Shown here: in pieces, positions 220 to 23,599 of the stretch
Numbering within the stretch: position 1 is the stretch's first letter
How the letters are laid out: every line of letters starts with the position of its first letter
Source: a virus
Reading direction: 5' to 3' (one strand)
Virus record (IMG/VR): IMGVR_UViG_3300005617_000114
Location: 1 to 25,796 of that record
DNA: 25,796 bases
Translations under genes and position numbers: made by a program
The notes under the pieces: model-generated
What the model saw: the letters and a program-made list of their open reading frames with translations, nothing else
Databases searched by the model: none
Told to the model about the DNA's origin: nothing

Positions 220-288
220 AGTTTAGGGCCTGTCAAAACATTCGTCAAGTCTCGGTGCGTTTTTATCAAACGTATACACTGTATTACG
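220..288 (-). promoter_or_regulatory. Promoter P1 with upstream 18-bp operator
   Basis: Read on the minus strand, a TTGACG -35 box (243-248) is followed after 17 bp by a TAAACT -10 box (220-225). The predicted transcript start is near 213, 18 bases before the TTG start at 195. The repeated near-palindrome CGTAATACAGTGTATACG lies at 271-288, 22 bp upstream of the -35 box and centred near -66. The stretch between operator and -35 resembles the one in P2, including TTGATAAAAAC versus TAGATAAAAAT, so operator, spacer and -35 appear to be copied as one module of about 48 bp. Confidence 0.75.
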
Positions 289-3903: not shown

Positions 3904-3973
3904 AGAATAAAACGCCTCGGGCAATTCGTCAAGTCACGCGCTATTTTTATCTAATCGTGTACGTTGTATTACG
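3904..3973 (-). promoter_or_regulatory. Promoter P2 with upstream 18-bp operator
   Basis: Minus strand: TTGACG -35 (3927-3932), 17 bp, TATTCT -10 (3904-3909), predicted start near 3897 and a 15-base leader to the GTG of the gpW-like gene. The operator copy CGTAATACAACGTACACG lies at 3956-3973, 23 bp upstream of the -35 box and centred near -67. It is more diverged than the P1 copy, but its position is the same to one base. P2 separates the terminase genes from the gpW/portal/lysis genes. Confidence 0.75.
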
Positions 3974-5912
3974 CTGTCGCGGGTTCGGCCATGCTCTCGC
4001 GCCACCAGGACCAGAAGGTCTCCCAGCGCACGGGCTCGTCGACCTCTTCCATGTAGATACCTTTCATGACGTAGAGAGCGCCCATGGCATAGAGACGACA
4101 GTCAAGAGCCTCGTTTCGTCGCCCGCGACCCTTGATCGGTTGCCACTTTTTCTTAGGACGGCCGAAGTTGTCGCGGTAGGTGACCTCTTCCTCGGCGGTT
4201 AGCTGCTTGAAATACTTCTCGCCGTGCGCGTCATCAAGCGGGAAATGGCAGTAGCCCAGCGGGACGAGCCCTTGCTCAGGACGGCTTTTACTCACCATGC
4301 GGTAAAACTGCGTCTTGAGTTGGTTCGTTTGCAGGCTCACTTTCTTGATGGCGTGCGTGGCGATGGGTCGGAGCGTGAAAAGCTGACGCTGGGCGTTCTG
4401 CAGCTCGGCGCCCTCGACGGGGAGCACTATTCCCTCGCCGAGGAAGCCCTCACAGAAGCCGTAGACCATGTCACCGTTATAGCTTGAGTCTATGAGCACG
4501 GCGTGGACAAGATGTCCCGATGGCTCTGAGTAGATCAGGTCACGAAGCCCCGTCCACGCCGAGGATTCGGGGTCTTCGGTGTCGCCCTTGAGGACGTGAT
4601 ACCCCAGCGACCAGGACTCAAGGCCCTCGCCCCAGGCGACGACCTCGGCCTCGATGCGATCCTTTTGGATGTCTGCGCCGATGGTAGTGCAGAGCGCGCC
4701 GATGGGATAGACGCCAGGGGTAAACTCTTCCTGGCCTTCGCGGCGGACCATGATCTTTTCATATTCGATGGCCCGGCCCACCTCATACCACGTCTCCCCG
4801 AAGACGGTATTGACGATGGTCTGGCGCTTGGTCACATCATCGCCGACGTCAAGCCATTCCTGGACGATGGACTCCCAGGAACGGAACCCGACGGGGCTGT
4901 AGAAGCTGGGGAGGTGGTAGCTCCGTAGACCATGGCGCCGCGGCTCTGCAGTCGGACGCCATTCGGCGATGCCGCCTTGGCGCTTGGTCCGCATGAAGTT
5001 GACCTTGTCCTCATTTTTCCAATGGCCCCCACATTTCTCGCACTCGTAGTGCACCGAGTCCTGGACGAGTCGGCCCGTGTCGTCGGTGGCATATTTGATG
5101 CCTTCCCACTTGAGGTACTGCATCGCTCCGCAGTGTTTGCATGGCACGAAGTAGCGGCGCTGGTCGCCTGCCAGAAACAAGGGTTCGATGATCGAAGAGG
5201 ACCGGAGCAACGGCGTCCCACCGTAGAGGATCTTTCGCGTCTCTTCATATTCGTCGGAACGGCGGAGGATGTTCGCAAGGGTCGAGCCTTCGCTTTTGGT
5301 CTTACCGCCTGGGGTACCGACTTCGTTTTTCCAAGCGTCGATTTCGTCCAGTAGCAGGCGGGAGAAGCCATTGCCGCGGAGTTTCGGGCCGACGTTCGGG
5401 CCGATGGCTCGGATGCGTCCGCCGGCGAACTCTATGAGGCTGTTCGTCTCGCCCGTAGCGCGGGCCCGTGCGGAAACCGTCGGGGCGAAAACCTTCGAGC
5501 TAAGGCCGGATTCTTGGATCATTGGCCGGATGCGCGTCTTCATGACCTCTTCGGCGGCCTCTTTGTCGGCTCCGACATAGAGCGTCGGATGAGGGGCGAC
5601 GTCGATAGAGTAGCCAATGAAGTTCTCGAGCACGCCCACCGTGAAGCCGACGCGGGCCCCCTTCATGACCGCGATCTCTTGGACGGGGCTCGTCTCGCTG
5701 AGGCAGTCGGCGATTTCTTCAAGGTAAGGCGTCACAGCCCAGTCGAAGAGTCCGTCTTGCGGGGAGAGCCCCTTCGGGATGACGCGGGTCTTCTCGGCCC
5801 ACTCTACCATGCTGACGTGGGTGATCTCGGTTTTGATCGTGGCCTGTAGGGTGTCGGCGATCCAGTCGCGTTGATCGGATAGTTCGGCTTCGGCAAAGAG
5901 ACTAGCGGGCAT
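3969..5912 (-). CDS. Terminase large subunit, GpA family
   Basis: 647 aa, matching lambda gpA (641 aa) in length. It is the packaging motor and nuclease that cuts concatemeric DNA and drives it through the portal by ATP hydrolysis. The ATPase part has a Walker A-like loop MKGARVGFTVG (83-93; gpA-type with Arg after Ala) and Walker B LLLDEID (186-192). Two Cys pairs (CKHC 258-261 and CEKC 291-294) may bind zinc. The C-terminal RNase H-like nuclease shows IGADIQKDRIE (411-421, Asp414) and LIDSSYNGD (473-481). It overlaps the small subunit by 11 bases. The stop lies at the edge of the operator in P2. Confidence 0.95.
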   Translation of the reverse strand: MPASLFAEAELSDQRDWIADTLQATIKTEITHVSMVEWAEKTRVIPKGLSPQDGLFDWAVTPYLEEIADCLSETSPVQEIAVMKGARVGFTVGVLENFIGYSIDVAPHPTLYVGADKEAAEEVMKTRIRPMIQESGLSSKVFAPTVSARARATGETNSLIEFAGGRIRAIGPNVGPKLRGNGFSRLLLDEIDAWKNEVGTPGGKTKSEGSTLANILRRSDEYEETRKILYGGTPLLRSSSIIEPLFLAGDQRRYFVPCKHCGAMQYLKWEGIKYATDDTGRLVQDSVHYECEKCGGHWKNEDKVNFMRTKRQGGIAEWRPTAEPRRHGLRSYHLPSFYSPVGFRSWESIVQEWLDVGDDVTKRQTIVNTVFGETWYEVGRAIEYEKIMVRREGQEEFTPGVYPIGALCTTIGADIQKDRIEAEVVAWGEGLESWSLGYHVLKGDTEDPESSAWTGLRDLIYSEPSGHLVHAVLIDSSYNGDMVYGFCEGFLGEGIVLPVEGAELQNAQRQLFTLRPIATHAIKKVSLQTNQLKTQFYRMVSKSRPEQGLVPLGYCHFPLDDAHGEKYFKQLTAEEEVTYRDNFGRPKKKWQPIKGRGRRNEALDCRLYAMGALYVMKGIYMEEVDEPVRWETFWSWWRESMAEPATA

Positions 5913-6582
5913 TGGCCACGCCTTCGAGCGCCCGGGTCACGGCGACGTTGAGCGCTTTCTCGAGTTCGAGTTCGCCGGCTGACCTGTCGGCGCCTGATTT
6001 CGCCATCGACCAGAGACGCGCGATGACTCGCCGCGGTACGCGCATTACGTTCTGAGAGAGCGATTGGTTCCAATTCTCGGCCGTGCGGCGGAACTCCTCT
6101 TTGCTGATGACGTTCTTTTTTGCCTGCGCGAGCTTGAACTCGTGGAGCAGGGTCATCGCCTTTTTGAGCGCGATGTCGGCCTTAAACTTTTCGATGGGTA
6201 GGTTCGCCGCCTCGCCGAGGTCGGACTTGAAACGCTCAGTCATCGCGGCCAGGTTCTTGCGCTCGGTTGGGCTCAGGTCAGCGAGGTCGACGCCTTCGAC
6301 GGTTGCCAGCTTTTTCGCCTGGCGCTTGGCGACTGCCTTTTGGAACTCTGCGCGTTCGGCTTTCTCACTTGGGTCTTCGACCCTCGTCTTTGTGGCCTTC
6401 GGCTTCGGCGCTGGCGTCGGCTTTGCGCCGTCCTTGTGCTGGGCAAGGTAGAGCGCGTTCGTCGGGTGGCCGGTGTCGATCTTGCCGTCTTCACGCTTGA
6501 CGATCTTGAGCGCGGGGGCTTTAGATACGGCGACCTTGGAGACGCCGGCCATGCGGGAGAACTCGGCGGCGGAGACGATCAC
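5902..6582 (-). CDS. Terminase small subunit, Nu1-like
   Basis: 226 aa, GTG at 6582. The N-terminus (VSAAEFSRMAGVSKVAVSKA, residues about 3-22) is a helix-turn-helix of the Nu1/MerR-like winged type that in lambda binds the cosB repeats. A Pro/Lys linker (residues 50-70) leads to an Arg/Lys-rich helical region (ERAEFQKAVAKRQAKKL) and a C-terminal part expected to bind the large subunit. Lambda Nu1 is 181 aa, so this protein is somewhat longer. It directly precedes the large subunit. It may recognise the repeat array in the 568-bp non-coding region upstream. Confidence 0.8.
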   Translation of the reverse strand: MIVSAAEFSRMAGVSKVAVSKAPALKIVKREDGKIDTGHPTNALYLAQHKDGAKPTPAPKPKATKTRVEDPSEKAERAEFQKAVAKRQAKKLATVEGVDLADLSPTERKNLAAMTERFKSDLGEAANLPIEKFKADIALKKAMTLLHEFKLAQAKKNVISKEEFRRTAENWNQSLSQNVMRVPRRVIARLWSMAKSGADRSAGELELEKALNVAVTRALEGVANAR

Positions 6583-6858: not shown

Positions 6859-6877
6859 GATGAGCACCTACCTATGC

Positions 6878-6917
6878 GTTAACCCTACCCCACCCATTAA
6901 CCGGCGTCAAGTTAACC
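6878..6917 (-). promoter_or_regulatory. Promoter P6 with three GTTAACC-type sites
   Basis: Minus strand: TTGACG -35 (6905-6910), 17 bp, TAGGGT -10 (6882-6887); predicted start near 6875, 17 bases before ATG 6858. Three copies of (G/A)TTAACC on the plus strand start at 6878, 6896 and 6911. They sit at the -10, in the spacer and just upstream of the -35 box, where a bound protein would block RNA polymerase. The 18-bp operator of the other promoters is absent. P6 drives the terminase genes. Confidence 0.65.
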
Positions 6918-7097
6918 CGGTCAAAAACTTTTGTCAGTGCGCGAGTTTCGAAAAGTCGATGCTTACCCGCCAACGTGACAAGGTCAGGAAGAACCTACGA
7001 TTTTTCGCGGCGTTTTGCCGTGTACCAGGCTGTCCCATGTGTACCAGAGCGACCACGTTGATGATAGGTCTATGCGCTAAAAAGACTTACGAACGTT

Positions 7098-7234
7098 TGT
7101 ACCGCTGTACCAGATGTACCACGCAGATGAGAGTCTTATACACGCGAGGAGAGCGGTGATCTTTGCCATGGATGACATAGCGTCTATGTACACATGAGAC
7201 ACATAATGTCTGGTACAGCTGGTACAGCGGTACA
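7098..7234. repeat. 24-bp inverted repeat, arms 7098-7121 and 7211-7234
   Basis: The arm at 7098-7121 is three TGTACC copies in a row. The reverse complement of 7211-7234 matches it at 23 of 24 positions, differing at one base between the second and third copies. The 89-bp centre holds the two small hairpins and a TGTACA. The conservation of spacer bases (GC between copies 1 and 2, AG-T between 2 and 3) shows that the arms derive from one another and not from chance repeats of a hexamer. Confidence 0.85.
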
Positions 7235-7320
7235 TTACTACTATTACTACTATCTAATTTATTATATTACATATACATATATAGCCACTTATCTTTGTAC
7301 CACTCATTTTTTATTTATTA
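7231..7320. other. AT-rich segment, 80% A+T
   Basis: Counting bases gives 18 G/C in 90, in a genome that is otherwise GC-rich. It contains runs such as TTTATTATATTACATATAC and ATTTTTTATTTATTA. It lies between the third cluster of GGTACA sites and the terminal palindrome. Such a stretch could be a DNA-unwinding element of an origin or a bendable segment of a packaging site. No matching -35 box was found for the TATAAT-like strings inside it. Confidence 0.7.
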
Positions 7321-7321
7321 G

Positions 7322-7335
7322 TTGTACCGGTACAA
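7322..7335. repeat. Perfect 14-bp palindrome TTGTACCGGTACAA
   Basis: Two TGTACC sites meet head to head with no spacer, giving a perfect twofold-symmetric site. It is the only place in the array where sites abut in this way. It could be a high-affinity dimer operator, or a symmetric nick site like lambda cosN; the sequence alone does not decide. Confidence 0.7.
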
Positions 7336-7385
7336 ATGTGGTTTTAGCGCTCTTTTGGCGTCCTAACCTCTGGCCGATGGGCATG

Positions 7386-7407
7386 AAAAAGCCCCCTTGC
7401 GGGGGCT
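7386..7407 (-). terminator. Rho-independent terminator after the RNA ligase operon
   Basis: Minus strand: AGCCCCC-GCAA-GGGGGCT hairpin (7390-7407) followed by TTTTT (7386-7390). It lies 20 bases after the RNA ligase stop and closes the long transcript from P3. Confidence 0.9.
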
Positions 7408-7426
7408 GGTGTTGGACGGGATAGGG

Positions 7427-10561: not shown

Positions 10562-10590
10562 AGCCTAGCGTAATACAGCGTATACGTCAA
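10562..10590 (-). promoter_or_regulatory. Promoter P3 with operator inside the spacer
   Basis: Minus strand: TTGACG -35 (10585-10590), 17 bp, TAGGCT -10 (10562-10567), predicted start near 10555, about 21 bases before ATG 10534. The 18-bp operator occupies 10569-10586, filling the spacer and overlapping the -35 box. Compared with the other four copies it is inverted (CGTATACGCTGTATTACG on the minus strand). Protein bound here would block polymerase, or twist the spacer as MerR proteins do. Confidence 0.75.
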
Positions 10591-13240: not shown

Positions 13241-14794
13241 CTATGCCCTCCTCTTCTGCTTCAATTCCCACATCTTCTCCGTCCACCCCGGCTTATAGCC
13301 GACGACCTCGGCCAGGGCTTCAACTTTTCTGCGCCGTGTCTCCACGTCATCTTTCCCTTCCATGATCTGGAACGCCTTCGCCATCAGCATTTTCGCCTTC
13401 ATCCCCTGCTCGGCCGCCATGGCTCGGGCGACAAATGCCGCCATGTCTGAGGCGTCATTCTGGTCTAGGCCCGCCTCCACCAGATCGCCCTCGACGATGC
13501 GAAGCTCCTCCTGCTTTTTCATCAGGTCCGCCGCCTGGAATGAGTGACCGCACGCAGGACACGACCGAGGCCGACCGGGCCAGACGCCGTAGCACTTCGG
13601 GCAGGTCGTCGTCGCAGGCGGTAGCTCGCCCTTGAGCCGCTTGGGGCTATCTAGGCTCCACTGCCGGTCGGCGAGAGGGTGGCCGTGCAGGGCGAAGTTC
13701 CCCGCATGGTCGAGGATGATCGAGCGCGGCTTGCCACTCATGGCGATAGCCTGTAGCCGGCCCTCGCGGGTCGAGAGGTCGCGGTCAGGGGCGTAGACCG
13801 GGCGCCCTATTCTCCCGTCCCATTGAAGCTCGAGTGTCAGCGACATGGTTTTCCTGAGCTTGATCAATCCAGTTGCTACTGGTATGTCCACGCCCTCACC
13901 GATCAAATCTTTGAAAAGTAAAAGTTGCCACTTCCCATTAGCCAGACCTTGGATCGCGTCATCTCGGTCCGAATCCGACATCTCGCCGTCAACTTCGCGG
14001 GCTCGGTATCCAGCCTGCCTAAACTGATCGGCATAGAGCTCTGCCTCGGCCAGGGAATTGCAAGCCACCAGCGTCGGAGCACCATCAAGTCGTTTTCGAT
14101 AATGGGAAATCACGTCGCCTACGATGCGCTTTTGGCTCATGACCTTTTCTTGCTCTTTGGTATCGAAGTCGCCTTGAACAATATGGAAAGTCTCGTGTAG
14201 TTCCTCGGGGACGGTGTAGACGGTTGGGAAAGTTAAATAGCCTTCCTCGGTGGCTTCACGCGGGTTCATGCCGTAGACGATATGATCCCAGCATACCCGA
14301 AGCCCGCGACCGTCCAGCCTAGCGGGGGTAGCTGTTACCCCCATGCGTGGCACTGACCCATAGTAAAAAATGACCTTACCCCAGGAGTTTTCTCTTTGCC
14401 CGTGGTGAGCCTCGTCGCTGATAATAAAGTCGGGACGCCAAATCTGGTCTAGCCGGTTCACTAAAGTCTGGACGCTGGCCACCTGGATCAAGTCTCCAGT
14501 CATAGGTTTTCCGGACACAATCTGACCACATGGCACGCCCATGCGATAGAGGCTTTTTACGGTCTGATCCAAAATCTCGCGGCGGTGGACGAGAATCAAT
14601 GTCCTCTTGCCCCAGGAACGGAGCTTCTCAGCCACCGCGCAGAACATGGCCGTCTTGCCGGTGCCGGTCGCAGAGACCACCAGGGGCGCGAGGATCTCGG
14701 GGCGGGCTCGCTCCGGGTCCTTGATGTGCATCAAGATGTCAAGGATGGCCTTGTCGTTCAGCACGCGCTTCTGATAGGGGCGGAGTTCGATCAT
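13241..14794 (-). CDS. DEAH-box superfamily II helicase
   Basis: 517 aa. Motifs are in order: LRPYQ (4-8); motif I ATGTGKT (42-48); Ia LVHRRE (68-73); II DEAHH (127-131); III VTATPAR (153-159); V GEGVDIP (299-305); VI QWDGRIGRP (324-332). The C-terminus has a zinc ribbon (CPKC 398-401, CPAC 412-415). This resembles phage helicases of the SSL2/type III restriction-like group found in replication and recombination modules. It would unwind DNA using ATP. Its start overlaps the upstream stop (TAATG). Confidence 0.9.
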   Translation of the reverse strand: MIELRPYQKRVLNDKAILDILMHIKDPERARPEILAPLVVSATGTGKTAMFCAVAEKLRSWGKRTLILVHRREILDQTVKSLYRMGVPCGQIVSGKPMTGDLIQVASVQTLVNRLDQIWRPDFIISDEAHHGQRENSWGKVIFYYGSVPRMGVTATPARLDGRGLRVCWDHIVYGMNPREATEEGYLTFPTVYTVPEELHETFHIVQGDFDTKEQEKVMSQKRIVGDVISHYRKRLDGAPTLVACNSLAEAELYADQFRQAGYRAREVDGEMSDSDRDDAIQGLANGKWQLLLFKDLIGEGVDIPVATGLIKLRKTMSLTLELQWDGRIGRPVYAPDRDLSTREGRLQAIAMSGKPRSIILDHAGNFALHGHPLADRQWSLDSPKRLKGELPPATTTCPKCYGVWPGRPRSCPACGHSFQAADLMKKQEELRIVEGDLVEAGLDQNDASDMAAFVARAMAAEQGMKAKMLMAKAFQIMEGKDDVETRRRKVEALAEVVGYKPGWTEKMWELKQKRRA

Positions 14795-17582: not shown

Positions 17583-17595
17583 TTCTTCCTCCAAT

Positions 17596-17631
17596 CGTAT
17601 ACACTGTATTACAGCTACTACAACTTGTCAA
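17596..17631 (-). promoter_or_regulatory. Promoter P4 with operator over the -10 box
   Basis: Minus strand: consensus TTGACA -35 (17626-17631), 17 bp, TACAGT -10 (17603-17608), predicted start near 17596. The operator copy TGTAATACAGTGTATACG (17596-17613) contains the -10 box, so occupancy would exclude polymerase. The -35 box lies inside the last codons of the VRR-NUC gene. Confidence 0.8.
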
Positions 17632-18252: not shown

Positions 18253-18664
18253 GGATCAACTCCCTGACCCATTGCCAGACTCGCCACCACCACGGGGCGC
18301 GGAGTCCTCGGGCGGCGTCGAAGTCGATGACGGGGCCAGTCCCCACGCCTTGCGGAATCCCTCCAATATGTCCCAGCACTTCCGCATTTCTTGGGCGGAC
18401 ACCGGAGGTAGACCCTCGTTCTCCCGCCTCGTCTTCACATAGCTCGAAAACTCGTCGAACGCTTCTTTCTCGGTCGGCACTCTCAACACGATGCTCTCCT
18501 TCGGGCTCCCGCCCATCAAACAAACTCCACTGCTCTGGTCCGCGCTCGGGTCGTCGATGCGCCCTGCACGTCGGGCCGATGCCCATGGCGACCGACTCCG
18601 GGTCAGTCAGCGGGCGGTGACAGATGCGGCAGACCGGCGACGCCACGTCAGAACGGGATATCAT
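18239..18664 (-). CDS. DUF6011-like small Cys protein with unusual C-terminal extension
   Basis: 141 aa if read to its stop. Residues 12-33 (VCRICHRPLTDPESVAMGIG, then PTCR) match the phage pattern CxxCxRPLTDPxSxxxGxGPxC of DUF6011-like proteins, a probable zinc site of unknown role. EQWSLFD (about 43-49) looks like the usual end of this family, but no stop follows. The next 60 codons have poor codon pattern where the overlapping gene is strong, then a Trp-rich end (WWWRVWQWVRELI) has good pattern again. The ATG at 18664 overlaps the primase stop by 17 bases. Confidence 0.6.
   Translation of the reverse strand: MISRSDVASPVCRICHRPLTDPESVAMGIGPTCRAHRRPERGPEQWSLFDGREPEGEHRVESADRERSVRRVFELCEDEAGERGSTSGVRPRNAEVLGHIGGIPQGVGTGPVIDFDAARGLRAPWWWRVWQWVRELIHGDV
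18256..18516 (-). CDS. Small helical protein overlapping the DUF6011-like frame
   Basis: 86 aa. Core TEKEAFDEFSSYVKTRRENE, then GLPPVSAQEMRKCWDILEGF, reads like a natural helical protein. Third-position GC is high, in contrast to the overlapping frame over the same bases. GGAG lies about 9 bases before the ATG at 18516, and the stop is 3 bases before the next gene's start. The last 28 residues are low-complexity (Ser/Pro/Gly), and in that part the other frame has the better codon pattern. Confidence 0.65.
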   Translation of the reverse strand: MGGSPKESIVLRVPTEKEAFDEFSSYVKTRRENEGLPPVSAQEMRKCWDILEGFRKAWGLAPSSTSTPPEDSAPRGGGESGNGSGS

Positions 18665-21317
18665 CCTCGCCCCCCAAATCCAGCGCCGGCTCGTCCTGCC
18701 CTTCGACGCCCAAATACCGATCCCTGAACCCTTCCCAGTCGAGGTCATGGCACCGCGGCTTACCGGCCGCCATGCGGATTTGCCGGGTTGGGCCTTCGAC
18801 TGTGAACGCGCACCGCTTGACCTGGTCGCCGTAAGCGTCGCCCCACGGCGTGTCGCGGAACTTGTCAGCGAGCACGGCTAGGTTCGTCGCGATGGACAGA
18901 AGCCAGGGCTTTGACGGCCCCTTGCGCCGTAGCGTGATGCCGTGGCGTTCTAGGAGCCGAAGAGCTGGCGAGTCAGTGTCCGTGGACTCCGAGACGCGCG
19001 TCAGCAGCTCGGCCACGGTGCGCGTGTGGCCCTCGTCATCGCGCAGTCCAAGCCCTACGAGGTGATGCATGAATGTGTCCTCGTCGCCCTGAACTACCTT
19101 CGACTCCTGCGACAGCTCGACGATCCATTTGTCCAGCCATGGGCCTGCGGTGCGTATCGACGCGCCAGACCGCGCGGCCCACGCGGTCGCCAACATCGGC
19201 GCGAGCTGGTCGGCGGCGCGCTTCGAACGGAACGCAGGCAGGTAGGTCTCCTTGAGGTACTCGATGTCCGAAATGATCCGCGGCAGAGCGCGGAAAATAC
19301 GGCGCGTGAACCGGCTCGGGTCATCGAGTAGGTCCGACAGCAGCGCGACGGTTTTGGCGATCTTTGCAGGCTCGTCCTTGCTCTTGGCCAACTCCAGCCG
19401 CGTGATGCGCGAGCTCACCGAGTCGTCTTCGACCGGTATCACCTTCGACGAGAAGGCGAACATGGACCGGATGCGGAAGGACTTCGTACCGCCGCCCGAC
19501 TGGCTGATGTTGATGTTTCCCGATCCATCGTCGGAAGCGTTACGGGCGAGTTCAAGGATAGACGCGATCTTCTCGCGCGCCGTCTTCGTCTTCGGCTCCA
19601 TCTCGGCCATGACTGCAGGCCTGGCGTCCTGGTCCAGCGCCCAGCGGATACCGGCCTCAGTGTCCTTGCCCGAGCCGATGTACGCGAAGGGCCCGGCGAG
19701 CCGGACGACGATGTTTTCGAATACCCACGATTTGCCGGAGCCTTTCTGCCCCGTCAGCCAGACGTGAGGTCGCCAGGTCAGCACTCCGCCGAAGGGTGAA
19801 AGCAGACACCAGCCCATGAGGAGAATGGCCGCGCTGTCCTCGGTGAACTCAAGCGCGCGGAAAAGCTCTTCGAGCTGTTCGCCGTCCTCGTCGGTGGACG
19901 CGGGTCCCGCCATCTCGCCGAAGGCGACGAGTGACGGGATATACCAGTAGTTCGAGCGGTATTCGCCGTACTCGTAGGCCGTGCCGTCGATTGTCACGAT
20001 GCGGTGCCCGTCGTTGAGCACGATGCCCGTATGGTCGCGCCAGACTCCTGCGCCGCGGATGCGCTTCGGGTCGAAGAATCCCGTCTTGTGCTGTAGGGTT
20101 AGCAGGAAGTCTTGCGCTGGTGCCACCTTGATACTGCCCTGGTCAGTGACCAGCATTCTCAGTCCCCAAAAGCTCAAAGACGCCAGCTCGCCGAGCTTCG
20201 AGGCGTTGAACGATCCCATGGGAATAGAAAACACGGTGCGTGTTTCGTTGGGCAGGAAGTAATACGCGGCCTTGTCATACCCGAGGCAGAGAAACGGCAG
20301 GCCATCGTCGGGCCGCGCATCCGGCTTCGATGATCCGACCGGCGGCGATCCAATGGCGACCAGGGGGCACGATGCGATGAAGTCCGGTAGAGCTATGGCC
20401 TGCGCCGAGGCGTCGGCGATGTCCCAGCCCTTCTCCTGACCCCGGATGTCCAGTAGCTTCGCGCCGGGGAGGCGCTTGACGATGGCGATACCAGCCTTGA
20501 GCCCTGGCTCGTCTGCGTCCGGCCAGATAACCAGATCTCCACGGGCCGCGAAGCGTTCGAGTGGCGCCCAATCCGTCTTGCTCGTCGCTAGAGCTCCGCC
20601 TGCCCACGTGGTCAGGATGTAGCCCGGTACCTCGACCTTCGCGCACTTCTCGCCTTCGACGATGAGCACCTTTGTACCCTGCGCGGCCTTCGTGATGATG
20701 TCCAGGAACAGCACGGGCCGGCCAGAGTCAAGCGCCTGGCCTTCGTGCCAGCGCCCATCTTCTCCGAAGAAATAAGGCACGATGTCTTTTGACCCGTCTG
20801 GCTTTTGGAAGCGCGAGACGCAAAAGACGATACCGGACTCGGCATTGCGGTAGGTGTAGCCCGCCGTGGCGTTGCCATGCGTCCGTTGCGCGTAGTCGCC
20901 CTTGACGGTTTGCCGCATCAGATCGAGCGCCGACTCCGGGGCTGGTATCACGGCCTTGGGACGCTTCGCCTTAGCGGGCTTGTCGAGGTGGCTCTTGCTC
21001 GGCGCTCCACCTGCAGGCGCGTCGACGGTACCGCCGAGGGCGCGGACGATCATCTCGGCGGCGGCTACCTTGGTCGGAGCTTTTCCAGACTCGACGATGA
21101 GGCCGATGAGGTCGCCCTTATCGCCGGACGCGAAATCCGACCAGAGGCCGGTGAGCCCATTGATGGAGAACGATCCAGCGGACCCGTCACCCCTGAGCGG
21201 GTTGCGGGTCCAGAACTCGTCGCCGTCCCATCGGGCATCGGGAGCAGAGAATAACGACTCTACAAGCTCGGGCGTTGCACGGCCCCGGGCCTGATCGAAA
21301 ACGGGATTTTTAGGCAT
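18648..21317 (-). CDS. TOPRIM primase-helicase
   Basis: 889 aa. N-terminal part (residues 1-95; WTRNPLRGDGSAGSFSIN, LWSDFASGDKGDLIGLI) resembles the primase recognition domain without its zinc cysteines. A TOPRIM part follows, with KVLIVEGEKCAK (216-227, Glu221) and DLVIWPDADEPG (261-272, DxD). Residues about 500-650 form a AAA/SF3-like helicase with Walker A TGQKGSGKSW (522-531), Walker B AVMAEMEP (568-575) and a basic SSRITRLEL (635-643). The protein would prime and unwind phage DNA at the fork. It is the main replication gene here; a separate initiator is not seen. Confidence 0.85.
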   Translation of the reverse strand: MPKNPVFDQARGRATPELVESLFSAPDARWDGDEFWTRNPLRGDGSAGSFSINGLTGLWSDFASGDKGDLIGLIVESGKAPTKVAAAEMIVRALGGTVDAPAGGAPSKSHLDKPAKAKRPKAVIPAPESALDLMRQTVKGDYAQRTHGNATAGYTYRNAESGIVFCVSRFQKPDGSKDIVPYFFGEDGRWHEGQALDSGRPVLFLDIITKAAQGTKVLIVEGEKCAKVEVPGYILTTWAGGALATSKTDWAPLERFAARGDLVIWPDADEPGLKAGIAIVKRLPGAKLLDIRGQEKGWDIADASAQAIALPDFIASCPLVAIGSPPVGSSKPDARPDDGLPFLCLGYDKAAYYFLPNETRTVFSIPMGSFNASKLGELASLSFWGLRMLVTDQGSIKVAPAQDFLLTLQHKTGFFDPKRIRGAGVWRDHTGIVLNDGHRIVTIDGTAYEYGEYRSNYWYIPSLVAFGEMAGPASTDEDGEQLEELFRALEFTEDSAAILLMGWCLLSPFGGVLTWRPHVWLTGQKGSGKSWVFENIVVRLAGPFAYIGSGKDTEAGIRWALDQDARPAVMAEMEPKTKTAREKIASILELARNASDDGSGNINISQSGGGTKSFRIRSMFAFSSKVIPVEDDSVSSRITRLELAKSKDEPAKIAKTVALLSDLLDDPSRFTRRIFRALPRIISDIEYLKETYLPAFRSKRAADQLAPMLATAWAARSGASIRTAGPWLDKWIVELSQESKVVQGDEDTFMHHLVGLGLRDDEGHTRTVAELLTRVSESTDTDSPALRLLERHGITLRRKGPSKPWLLSIATNLAVLADKFRDTPWGDAYGDQVKRCAFTVEGPTRQIRMAAGKPRCHDLDWEGFRDRYLGVEGQDEPALDLGGEDDIPF

Positions 21318-23551: not shown

Positions 23552-23570
23552 GGAAGACCTCCTGACAGAT

Positions 23571-23599
23571 AGCGTAAACGCTGTATTACGTTTCGTCAA
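23571..23599 (-). promoter_or_regulatory. Promoter P5 with operator in the spacer
   Basis: Minus strand: TTGACG -35 (23594-23599), 17 bp, TACGCT -10 (23571-23576), predicted start near 23564. The operator CGTAATACAGCGTTTACG (23573-23590) fills the spacer and overlaps the -10 box. P5 drives the replication operon. Confidence 0.75.

What the first reader, a model, noticed from the sequence alone, without database searches (positions are those of the whole stretch)
7021..7335. Dense TGTACC/GGTACA array beside terminase genes: candidate cos/pac site or origin
About a dozen hexamer sites in 315 bp, in triplets spaced 8-10 bp, with an 80% AT stretch (7231-7320). In lambda-like phages with GpA terminase, cos lies just upstream of the small-subunit gene and holds repeats bound by Nu1. 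The array is 440-750 bp upstream of the Nu1-like gene. Iterons plus an AT-rich stretch also fit a replication origin. Both roles could share the site.
Basis: partly seen in the sequence, partly recalled or inferred. Interest (0 to 1): 0.82.

Follow-up and report, generated by a model that had tools for sequence, protein, structure and literature searches.

The report
Split-iteron phage replication origin
The repeat array is most likely the place where this phage starts copying its DNA, built on a plan known from phage satellites (two facing sets of short repeats) that turns out to be shared by hundreds of ordinary phage sequences, so it gives a simple way to predict their replication origins.

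Summary
The array is real: 11 exact TGTACC/GGTACA hexamers lie in 7021-7334. Its core is a triplet (starts 8 and 9 bp apart) and an inverted copy 91 bp away, next to an 80% AT tract that begins with a TAG/TAA-type trinucleotide run.

Exact-pattern scans found the inverted paired layout in 117 IMG/VR stretches, against 2 for a scrambled hexamer of the same composition. The closest relative (G001/L016) has the same triplets at the same spacing.

The layout matches P4 ori/crr and PICI origins. In tailed phages it tends to sit just 3' of a primase-helicase gene: 0-1 kb 3' in 47 of the 59 TGTTAC-array loci where such a gene was found (random positions 15%). In phi105 it lies 5.3 kb from the annotated cos.

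In BPP-1 and its near relative G018 the hexamer differs, and their otherwise ~90% identical primases diverge to 52% in a 29-residue C-terminal stretch. TerS diverged too, so this is not exclusive evidence.

Verdict: replication origin of the P4/PICI plan, probably bound by the window's primase-helicase (18651-21317). Cos/pac is disfavoured but not excluded for this phage: the array is near terS and 11 kb from the primase. No binding or replication data exist.

The parts
7021..7045 (+). outer iterons: TGTACC at 7021-7026 and 7040-7045
   Evidence: exact matches
7098..7120 (+). iteron triplet A: TGTACC-N2-TGTACC-N3-TGTACC (starts 8 and 9 bp apart)
   Evidence: same triplet in G001/L016
7121..7211 (.). 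91-bp spacer between the two inverted triplets (54% AT)
   Evidence: triplet starts are 114 bp apart both here and in L016
7212..7234 (-). iteron triplet B, inverted copy of triplet A
7236..7252 (-). trinucleotide run (TACTACTATTACTACTA on +; TAG/TAA units on - running into triplet B), trio-like
   Evidence: such runs lie at the arrays of many phages with this primase type and hardly ever with other primase types
7231..7320 (.). 80% AT tract, proposed DNA-unwinding element
7296..7301 (+). iteron inside the AT-rich tract
7323..7334 (.). palindromic double iteron TGTACCGGTACA; G001 has the same 12-mer at the matching outer position
18651..21317 (-). 889-aa primase-helicase, proposed initiator that binds the iterons with its C-terminal region
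   Evidence: PHROG DNA primase families; TOPRIM/CHC2 zinc-ribbon matches in the family and a conserved P-loop; 64-65% identical to the G001 protein
5902..6582 (-). terminase small subunit, the binder in the rival cos/pac reading
   Evidence: phrog_57; about 30% identical to the G001 counterpart
3969..5912 (-). gpA-type terminase large subunit
   Evidence: PF05876/PF20454

Best explanation
The array is the phage's replication origin, built on the split-iteron plan of P4 and PICIs. Proposed steps: (1) the phage primase-helicase (18651-21317) binds the TGTACC iterons with its C-terminal region [inferred]; (2) monomers assemble on the two inverted triplets and the outer sites [inferred]; (3) the AT-rich tract that starts with the trinucleotide run (7231-7320) melts and the P-loop helicase domain is loaded [inferred]; (4) the TOPRIM-type primase part primes DNA synthesis [inferred from the family]. 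Shown here: the array, its inverted architecture, its recurrence in many phages, its preference for the 3' flank of primase-helicase genes, and a change of hexamer that goes with a change of the primase C-terminus in one phage pair.
For: Same triplets and spacing in the closest relative G001/L016, whose primase is 64-65% identical overall and 80% in residues 823-862 while TerS is about 30% identical. Inverted paired TGTACC arrays in 117 IMG/VR stretches against 2 for a scrambled hexamer. Long contigs as a rule have one array. P4 crr/ori repeats are 9-11 bp apart in both orientations, crr just 3' of the alpha gene; the E. coli CFT073 PICI has TGTCTACC-type repeats on both sides of a core 3' of its primase gene; PICI origins are described as two iteron sets flanking an AT-rich region and one was functionally tested (PMC6092414). 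Comparable arrays were found de novo in BPP-1, 4316, BcepC6B, phi105, Smarc4 and vB_KppS-Ant (strict detector) and, with a looser detector, in S-H1, KLER1-1, MQ-4 and PY223; lambda has none. A TGTTAC scan suggested by phi105 gave at least 120 stretches; HMMs found a primase-helicase in 59 of these loci and the array was 0-1 kb 3' of it in 47, against 14.7% for random positions. Window-type primases occur with TGTTAC triplets at the same 8/9 spacing, e.g. L358, 108 bp 3' of the gene. G018 versus BPP-1: TGTACC versus TGCCTC at the same place, primases about 90% identical but 15/29 in residues 817-845.
Against: No binding, replication or coverage data. In the window the array is 11 kb from the primase and next to terS. 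GC skew switches here with the wrong sign for a simple bidirectional origin. TerS of G018 and BPP-1 also differ (42%, N-terminal part unaligned), so that co-variation does not single out the primase. G021 has arrays but no D5/DUF927-type hit; it has another primase family. Within the 116 TGTACC loci tested only 11 held a recognised primase-helicase, 6 of them with the array 0-1 kb 3' of it; in the large marine group it is about 10 kb away. No Pfam domain marks a DNA-binding C-terminus in the window protein, and the AlphaFold model failed (pLDDT 33).
Confidence: 0.82

Rival explanations
1. The array is a cos or pac packaging site: TerS binds the iterons and the gpA-type terminase cuts nearby, in the manner of lambda cosB or the P1 pac hexamer clusters (these analogies are from my own knowledge).
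For: It lies 439-753 bp upstream of terS, the usual cos position. Other phages with a large (gpA-sized) TerL also have arrays upstream of or near terS (KLER1-1, PY223; possibly L026). TerS differs between G018 and BPP-1 just as the iterons do. Some contigs end within 100 bp of an array (seen; not tested against a null).
Against: phi105: array 5.3 kb from the annotated cos. G030: array next to the primase, TerL 11 kb away. The same plan serves P4 and PICI origins. Arrays go with several TerL families. Window and G001 share the triplets exactly although TerS is only about 30% identical.
Confidence: 0.12
2. The array is an operator of a phage transcription regulator that controls the late operon or the early/late switch.
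For: It heads the terminase operon; in the marine group it lies between divergent early and late blocks.
Against: As a rule one array per contig rather than several operators; more than ten sites plus an AT-rich tract exceed a usual operator; the position follows the 3' end of primase-helicase genes in the TGTTAC set; no gene shared by the window/G001 pair and the other array-bearing contigs was found by blastp (a limited test).
Confidence: 0.05
3. attP or a partition site: arm-type integrase sites or ParB-like sites.
For: Repeated sites in both orientations around a core occur in attP (P4 attP arm repeats).
Against: P4 annotates its attP arm repeats separately from its ori/crr repeats. No integrase was identified among the window proteins scanned (not all ORFs were scanned). 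BPP-1 attP is annotated at position 1-27, far from its array at 26.6 kb.
Confidence: 0.01

Closest known systems
Phage P4 ori/crr with alpha protein
   Same: Short repeats 9-11 bp apart in both orientations; crr directly 3' of the alpha gene; a winged-helix domain of alpha binds the origin repeats (stated in PMC4234260, citing Yeo 2002).
   Different: P4 repeat is TGTTCACC, not TGTACC; P4 splits ori and crr; P4 is a satellite; no significant similarity of the window primase C-terminus to alpha was shown.
PICI/SaPI replication origins (EcCICFT073)
   Same: Two iteron sets flanking an AT-rich region, 3' of the primase/replicase gene (PMC6092414; sequence read).
   Different: Iteron TGTCTACC; satellite; in the window the array is 11 kb from the primase and the AT-rich tract lies beside triplet B rather than in the 91-bp spacer.
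Bordetella phage BPP-1/BIP-1 replication module
   Same: Inverted pairs of 9-bp-spaced hexamers around a ~75-bp spacer, near the primase 3' end and upstream of terS.
   Different: Iteron TGCCTC. PMC4234260 searched BIP-1 for repeats, found none that looked like an origin, and proposed a stem-loop instead.
lambda ori and lambda cosB
   Same: Repeated protein-binding sites; lambda cos is just upstream of the terminase small-subunit gene (cosB from my own knowledge).
   Different: Lambda ori iterons are annotated inside gene O as 18-bp sites; lambda has no hit with the strict detector.

Membership tests
P4/PICI-type split-iteron origin | two sets of short iterons in opposite orientation separated by tens of bp | tested here: met
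P4/PICI-type split-iteron origin | AT-rich melting region between the iteron sets | tested here: inconclusive
   the 80% AT tract lies between triplet B and the outer sites 7296/7323-7334; the 91-bp spacer between the triplets is only 54% AT
P4/PICI-type split-iteron origin | origin immediately 3' of the primase/rep gene (PICI description; P4 ori itself is not) | tested here: not met
   11 kb away in the window and in G001; met in relatives with window-type primase (L358, L318, L256, S-H1, KLER1-1). This lowers strict membership of the PICI type, not the claim that it works like one.
P4/PICI-type split-iteron origin | element encodes its own primase-helicase type replication protein | tested here: met
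   PHROG DNA primase hits, TOPRIM/CHC2 in the family, P-loop in the alignment
P4/PICI-type split-iteron origin | initiator binds the iterons through a C-terminal winged helix | not testable with these tools
   no Pfam hit; AlphaFold model pLDDT 33; only indirect support from G018/BPP-1
P4/PICI-type split-iteron origin | drives autonomous replication | not testable with these tools
   needs an experiment
cos/pac site | virion DNA ends or packaging initiation at the site | not testable with these tools
   no reads available
cos/pac site | in a phage with annotated ends, the corresponding element coincides with the ends | tested here: not met
   phi105: array 33902-34014, annotated cos at 1-7/39312-39318
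cos/pac site | position upstream of terS | tested here: met
   439-753 bp upstream
DnaA-trio-like element | trinucleotide (TAG/TAA) repeats next to initiator-binding sites in the unwinding region | tested here: inconclusive
   sequence resemblance in window, G001, KLER1-1, MQ-4, PY223 and the L250 group; function and single-strand binding untested

The most novel reading that the evidence does not exclude
The trinucleotide run beside triplet B is a functional trio-like element: a phage primase-helicase initiator would open its origin with the same logic of double-strand binding sites plus trinucleotide repeats that DnaA uses at bacterial oriC, reached independently.
Probability: 0.3. Interest if true: 0.75.

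Novelty: new variant of a known kind. Interest (0 to 1): 0.62.

Why it matters
Replication origins of most tailed phages are unknown. PMC6092414 called the two-iteron-set origin unique to PICIs among known bacterial replicons, and PMC4234260 found no origin-like iterons in BIP-1. The sequence signature here (inverted pairs of 8-11-bp-spaced hexamers, often just 3' of a primase-helicase gene) locates candidate origins in hundreds of phage contigs and names the protein to test. Pairs such as BPP-1 and G018 look like natural specificity swaps between iteron and initiator C-terminus.

Tried and rejected
AlphaFold of the window primase-helicase half failed (pLDDT 33) and no fold search was run on it. 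HHalign between primases of different array-bearing phages showed similarity only among D5-type proteins and no universal domain. GC skew: extremum near the array in many contigs but confounded by divergent gene blocks, and of the wrong sign in window and G001. TerL relatives of the window (L024-L030) lack TGTACC arrays, but L026 may have a GTTAC array near terS and most of the others hold little sequence upstream, so this does not separate TerS from primase. L028's CGCACGAA repeats form a one-orientation direct-repeat run, a different layout. Of the 14 genome contigs matches several look like chance or simple repeats. No relevant paper was found for the hexamer itself. The MQ-4 and PY223 matches come only from the looser detector, whose top count (7) is just above the shuffled best (4-5).

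Full report
Observation. The 559-bp intergenic gap 6868-7426 holds 11 exact TGTACC/GGTACA sites between 7021 and 7334. The window has 19 in all, against 4.3 expected, and shuffling the gap itself gives a mean of 0.27 and a maximum of 4. The core is triplet A (7098-7120, +) and its inverted copy triplet B (7212-7234, -), with starts 8 and 9 bp apart and a 91-bp spacer. An 80% AT tract (7231-7320) follows triplet B and starts with TACTACTATTACTACTA (7236-7252); further sites are at 7296 and in a palindrome TGTACCGGTACA at 7323-7334. The window is an IMG/VR virus record of 25,796 bp. Its identified genes are on the - strand: gpA-type TerL, phrog_57 TerS, RNA ligase, RecT, YqaJ exonuclease, a helicase and a primase.

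Recurrence. A triplet pattern scan found 20 viral stretches. The inverted paired pattern TGTACC-N3-TGTACC-N60-90-GGTACA-N3-GGTACA found 117, while a scrambled hexamer of the same composition found 2. The central gap is 75 bp in 79 of 127 pattern matches. In 69 ungapped-aligned members of the large marine group, TGTACC sites not fixed by the search pattern are conserved at 0.82 against 0.61 for other positions; these contigs are related, so this is not a set of independent cases. Long contigs generally have one array; G026 has two and G014 a second small cluster. The closest relative, G001/L016, has the same triplets with starts 114 bp apart, the outer palindrome and TAG/ATT runs. Window and G001 primases are 64-65% identical (80% in residues 823-862) and TerS about 30%.

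What it resembles. P4 crr and ori carry TGTTCACC/GGTGAACA repeats 9-11 bp apart in both orientations, crr directly 3' of the alpha gene. The E. coli CFT073 PICI has TGTCTACC-type repeats on both sides of a core 3' of its primase gene. PMC6092414 describes PICI origins as two iteron sets flanking an AT-rich region and tests one functionally. PMC4234260 states that P4 alpha binds its origin repeats with a winged-helix domain and that a repeat search in BIP-1 found no origin-like iterons.

Generality in tailed phages. A strict detector (paired 6-mers 8-11 bp apart, inverted, 40-130 bp gap) expects 0.1 clusters in 382 kb of shuffled sequence. It finds the window and G001 arrays, BPP-1 (TGCCTC type, 26607-26705), 4316 (32338-32434) and BcepC6B (record junction). 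With somewhat wider limits it also finds phi105 (TGTTAC, 33902-34014), Smarc4 and vB_KppS-Ant, and nothing in lambda. S-H1 and KLER1-1 have arrays just 3' of the primase by a looser detector; MQ-4 and PY223 are weaker, loose-detector cases. P4 itself is not caught by the strict detector.

Test of a prediction. phi105 suggested TGTTAC as another iteron. HMMs built from ten primase-helicase groups found such a gene in 59 of these loci; in 47 the array lies 0-1 kb 3' of it, against 14.7% for random positions. In the 116 TGTACC loci only 11 contained a recognised primase-helicase, 6 with the array 0-1 kb 3'; the marine group keeps it about 10 kb away, outside most loci. One of the two scrambled-hexamer hits also sits 1 bp 3' of a primase-helicase gene. 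Window-type primases occur with TGTTAC arrays that have the window's 8/9-bp triplet spacing: L358 (108 bp 3' of the gene), and L250, L276, L305 and L357, where the array is roughly 8-11 kb away.

Packaging versus replication. In phi105 the annotated cos is at the record ends and the array 5.3 kb away, beside the primase. In G030 the array is beside a DUF927 primase and TerL is 11 kb away. Arrays accompany several TerL families. G018 and BPP-1 form a natural comparison: same place, TGTACC versus TGCCTC, primases about 90% identical except 15/29 in residues 817-845. The 29-residue stretch was chosen after seeing the alignment; in fixed 50-residue bins the last full bin has 35/50 against 41-48 elsewhere. 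TerS is also divergent in that pair (42%), so the comparison supports but does not prove the primase as binder. For the window itself the array is 11 kb from the primase and 0.4-0.75 kb from terS, so cos/pac remains possible until ends are mapped.

Trinucleotide run. In 7 of 14 phages or loci with window-type primase the strongest period-3 run lies within 150 bp of the array (0.34 expected); in 51 loci with other primase types this happens once (2.95 expected). In the window the run ranks second of two at the threshold used; in PY223 seventh. L250, L276, L305 and L357 are close relatives and not independent. The resemblance to DnaA-trios rests on my own knowledge; function is untested.

GC skew. 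Cumulative skew peaks at about 6.6-6.9 kb in the window, but with the sign opposite to a simple bidirectional origin; in the divergent marine contigs the minimum is often at the array but gene orientation explains it equally well.

Conclusion. The array is most likely a split-iteron replication origin, about 0.82, with cos/pac at 0.12. The binding protein, melting site and loading order are inferred. The kind is known from P4 and PICIs; its spread through tailed phages with a shared hexamer, its separation from the primase gene and the trinucleotide run make it a variant.

Noticed in passing
window 267-287, 3952-3972, 10566-10587, 17592-17612, 23569-23589: A ~21-bp repeat (near GTAATACAGTGTATACG on one strand) recurs five times across the window; position and look suggest a phage promoter or operator set.
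   Followed up: no
G026 (locus L179) 2277-2467 and 14232-14378: An 18.5-kb contig with two TGTACC arrays, reminiscent of P4 having ori and crr.
   Followed up: no
G021 (loci L168-L170): A 45.2-kb contig whose ends overlap by 183 bp (one mismatch seen), so probably a complete circular genome; the overlap lies in its TGTACC array; no D5/DUF927 hit, a different primase family.
   Followed up: partly
L036 6288-6523 (Komagataeibacter swingsii contig NZ_NKUB01000011.1); L035 and L044 (Bacteroidales MAGs); L037: TGTACC arrays in contigs of bacterial genomes; neighbours not identified as phage here.
   Followed up: no
NC_005887 (BcepC6B) record start: The GenBank record of BcepC6B begins inside its iteron array.
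   Followed up: no
L236 (KLER1-1) 80-135: Separate GGTTGAA/TTCAACC palindromes between the record start and terS, distinct from the TGCTAA array; possible packaging-site repeats.
   Followed up: no
array-bearing IMG/VR contigs, e.g. L087, L072, L096, L121, L115, L013, L014: Several contigs end within about 100 bp of an array, at different offsets; could be assembly breaks at repeats or a packaging signal; not tested against a null.
   Followed up: no
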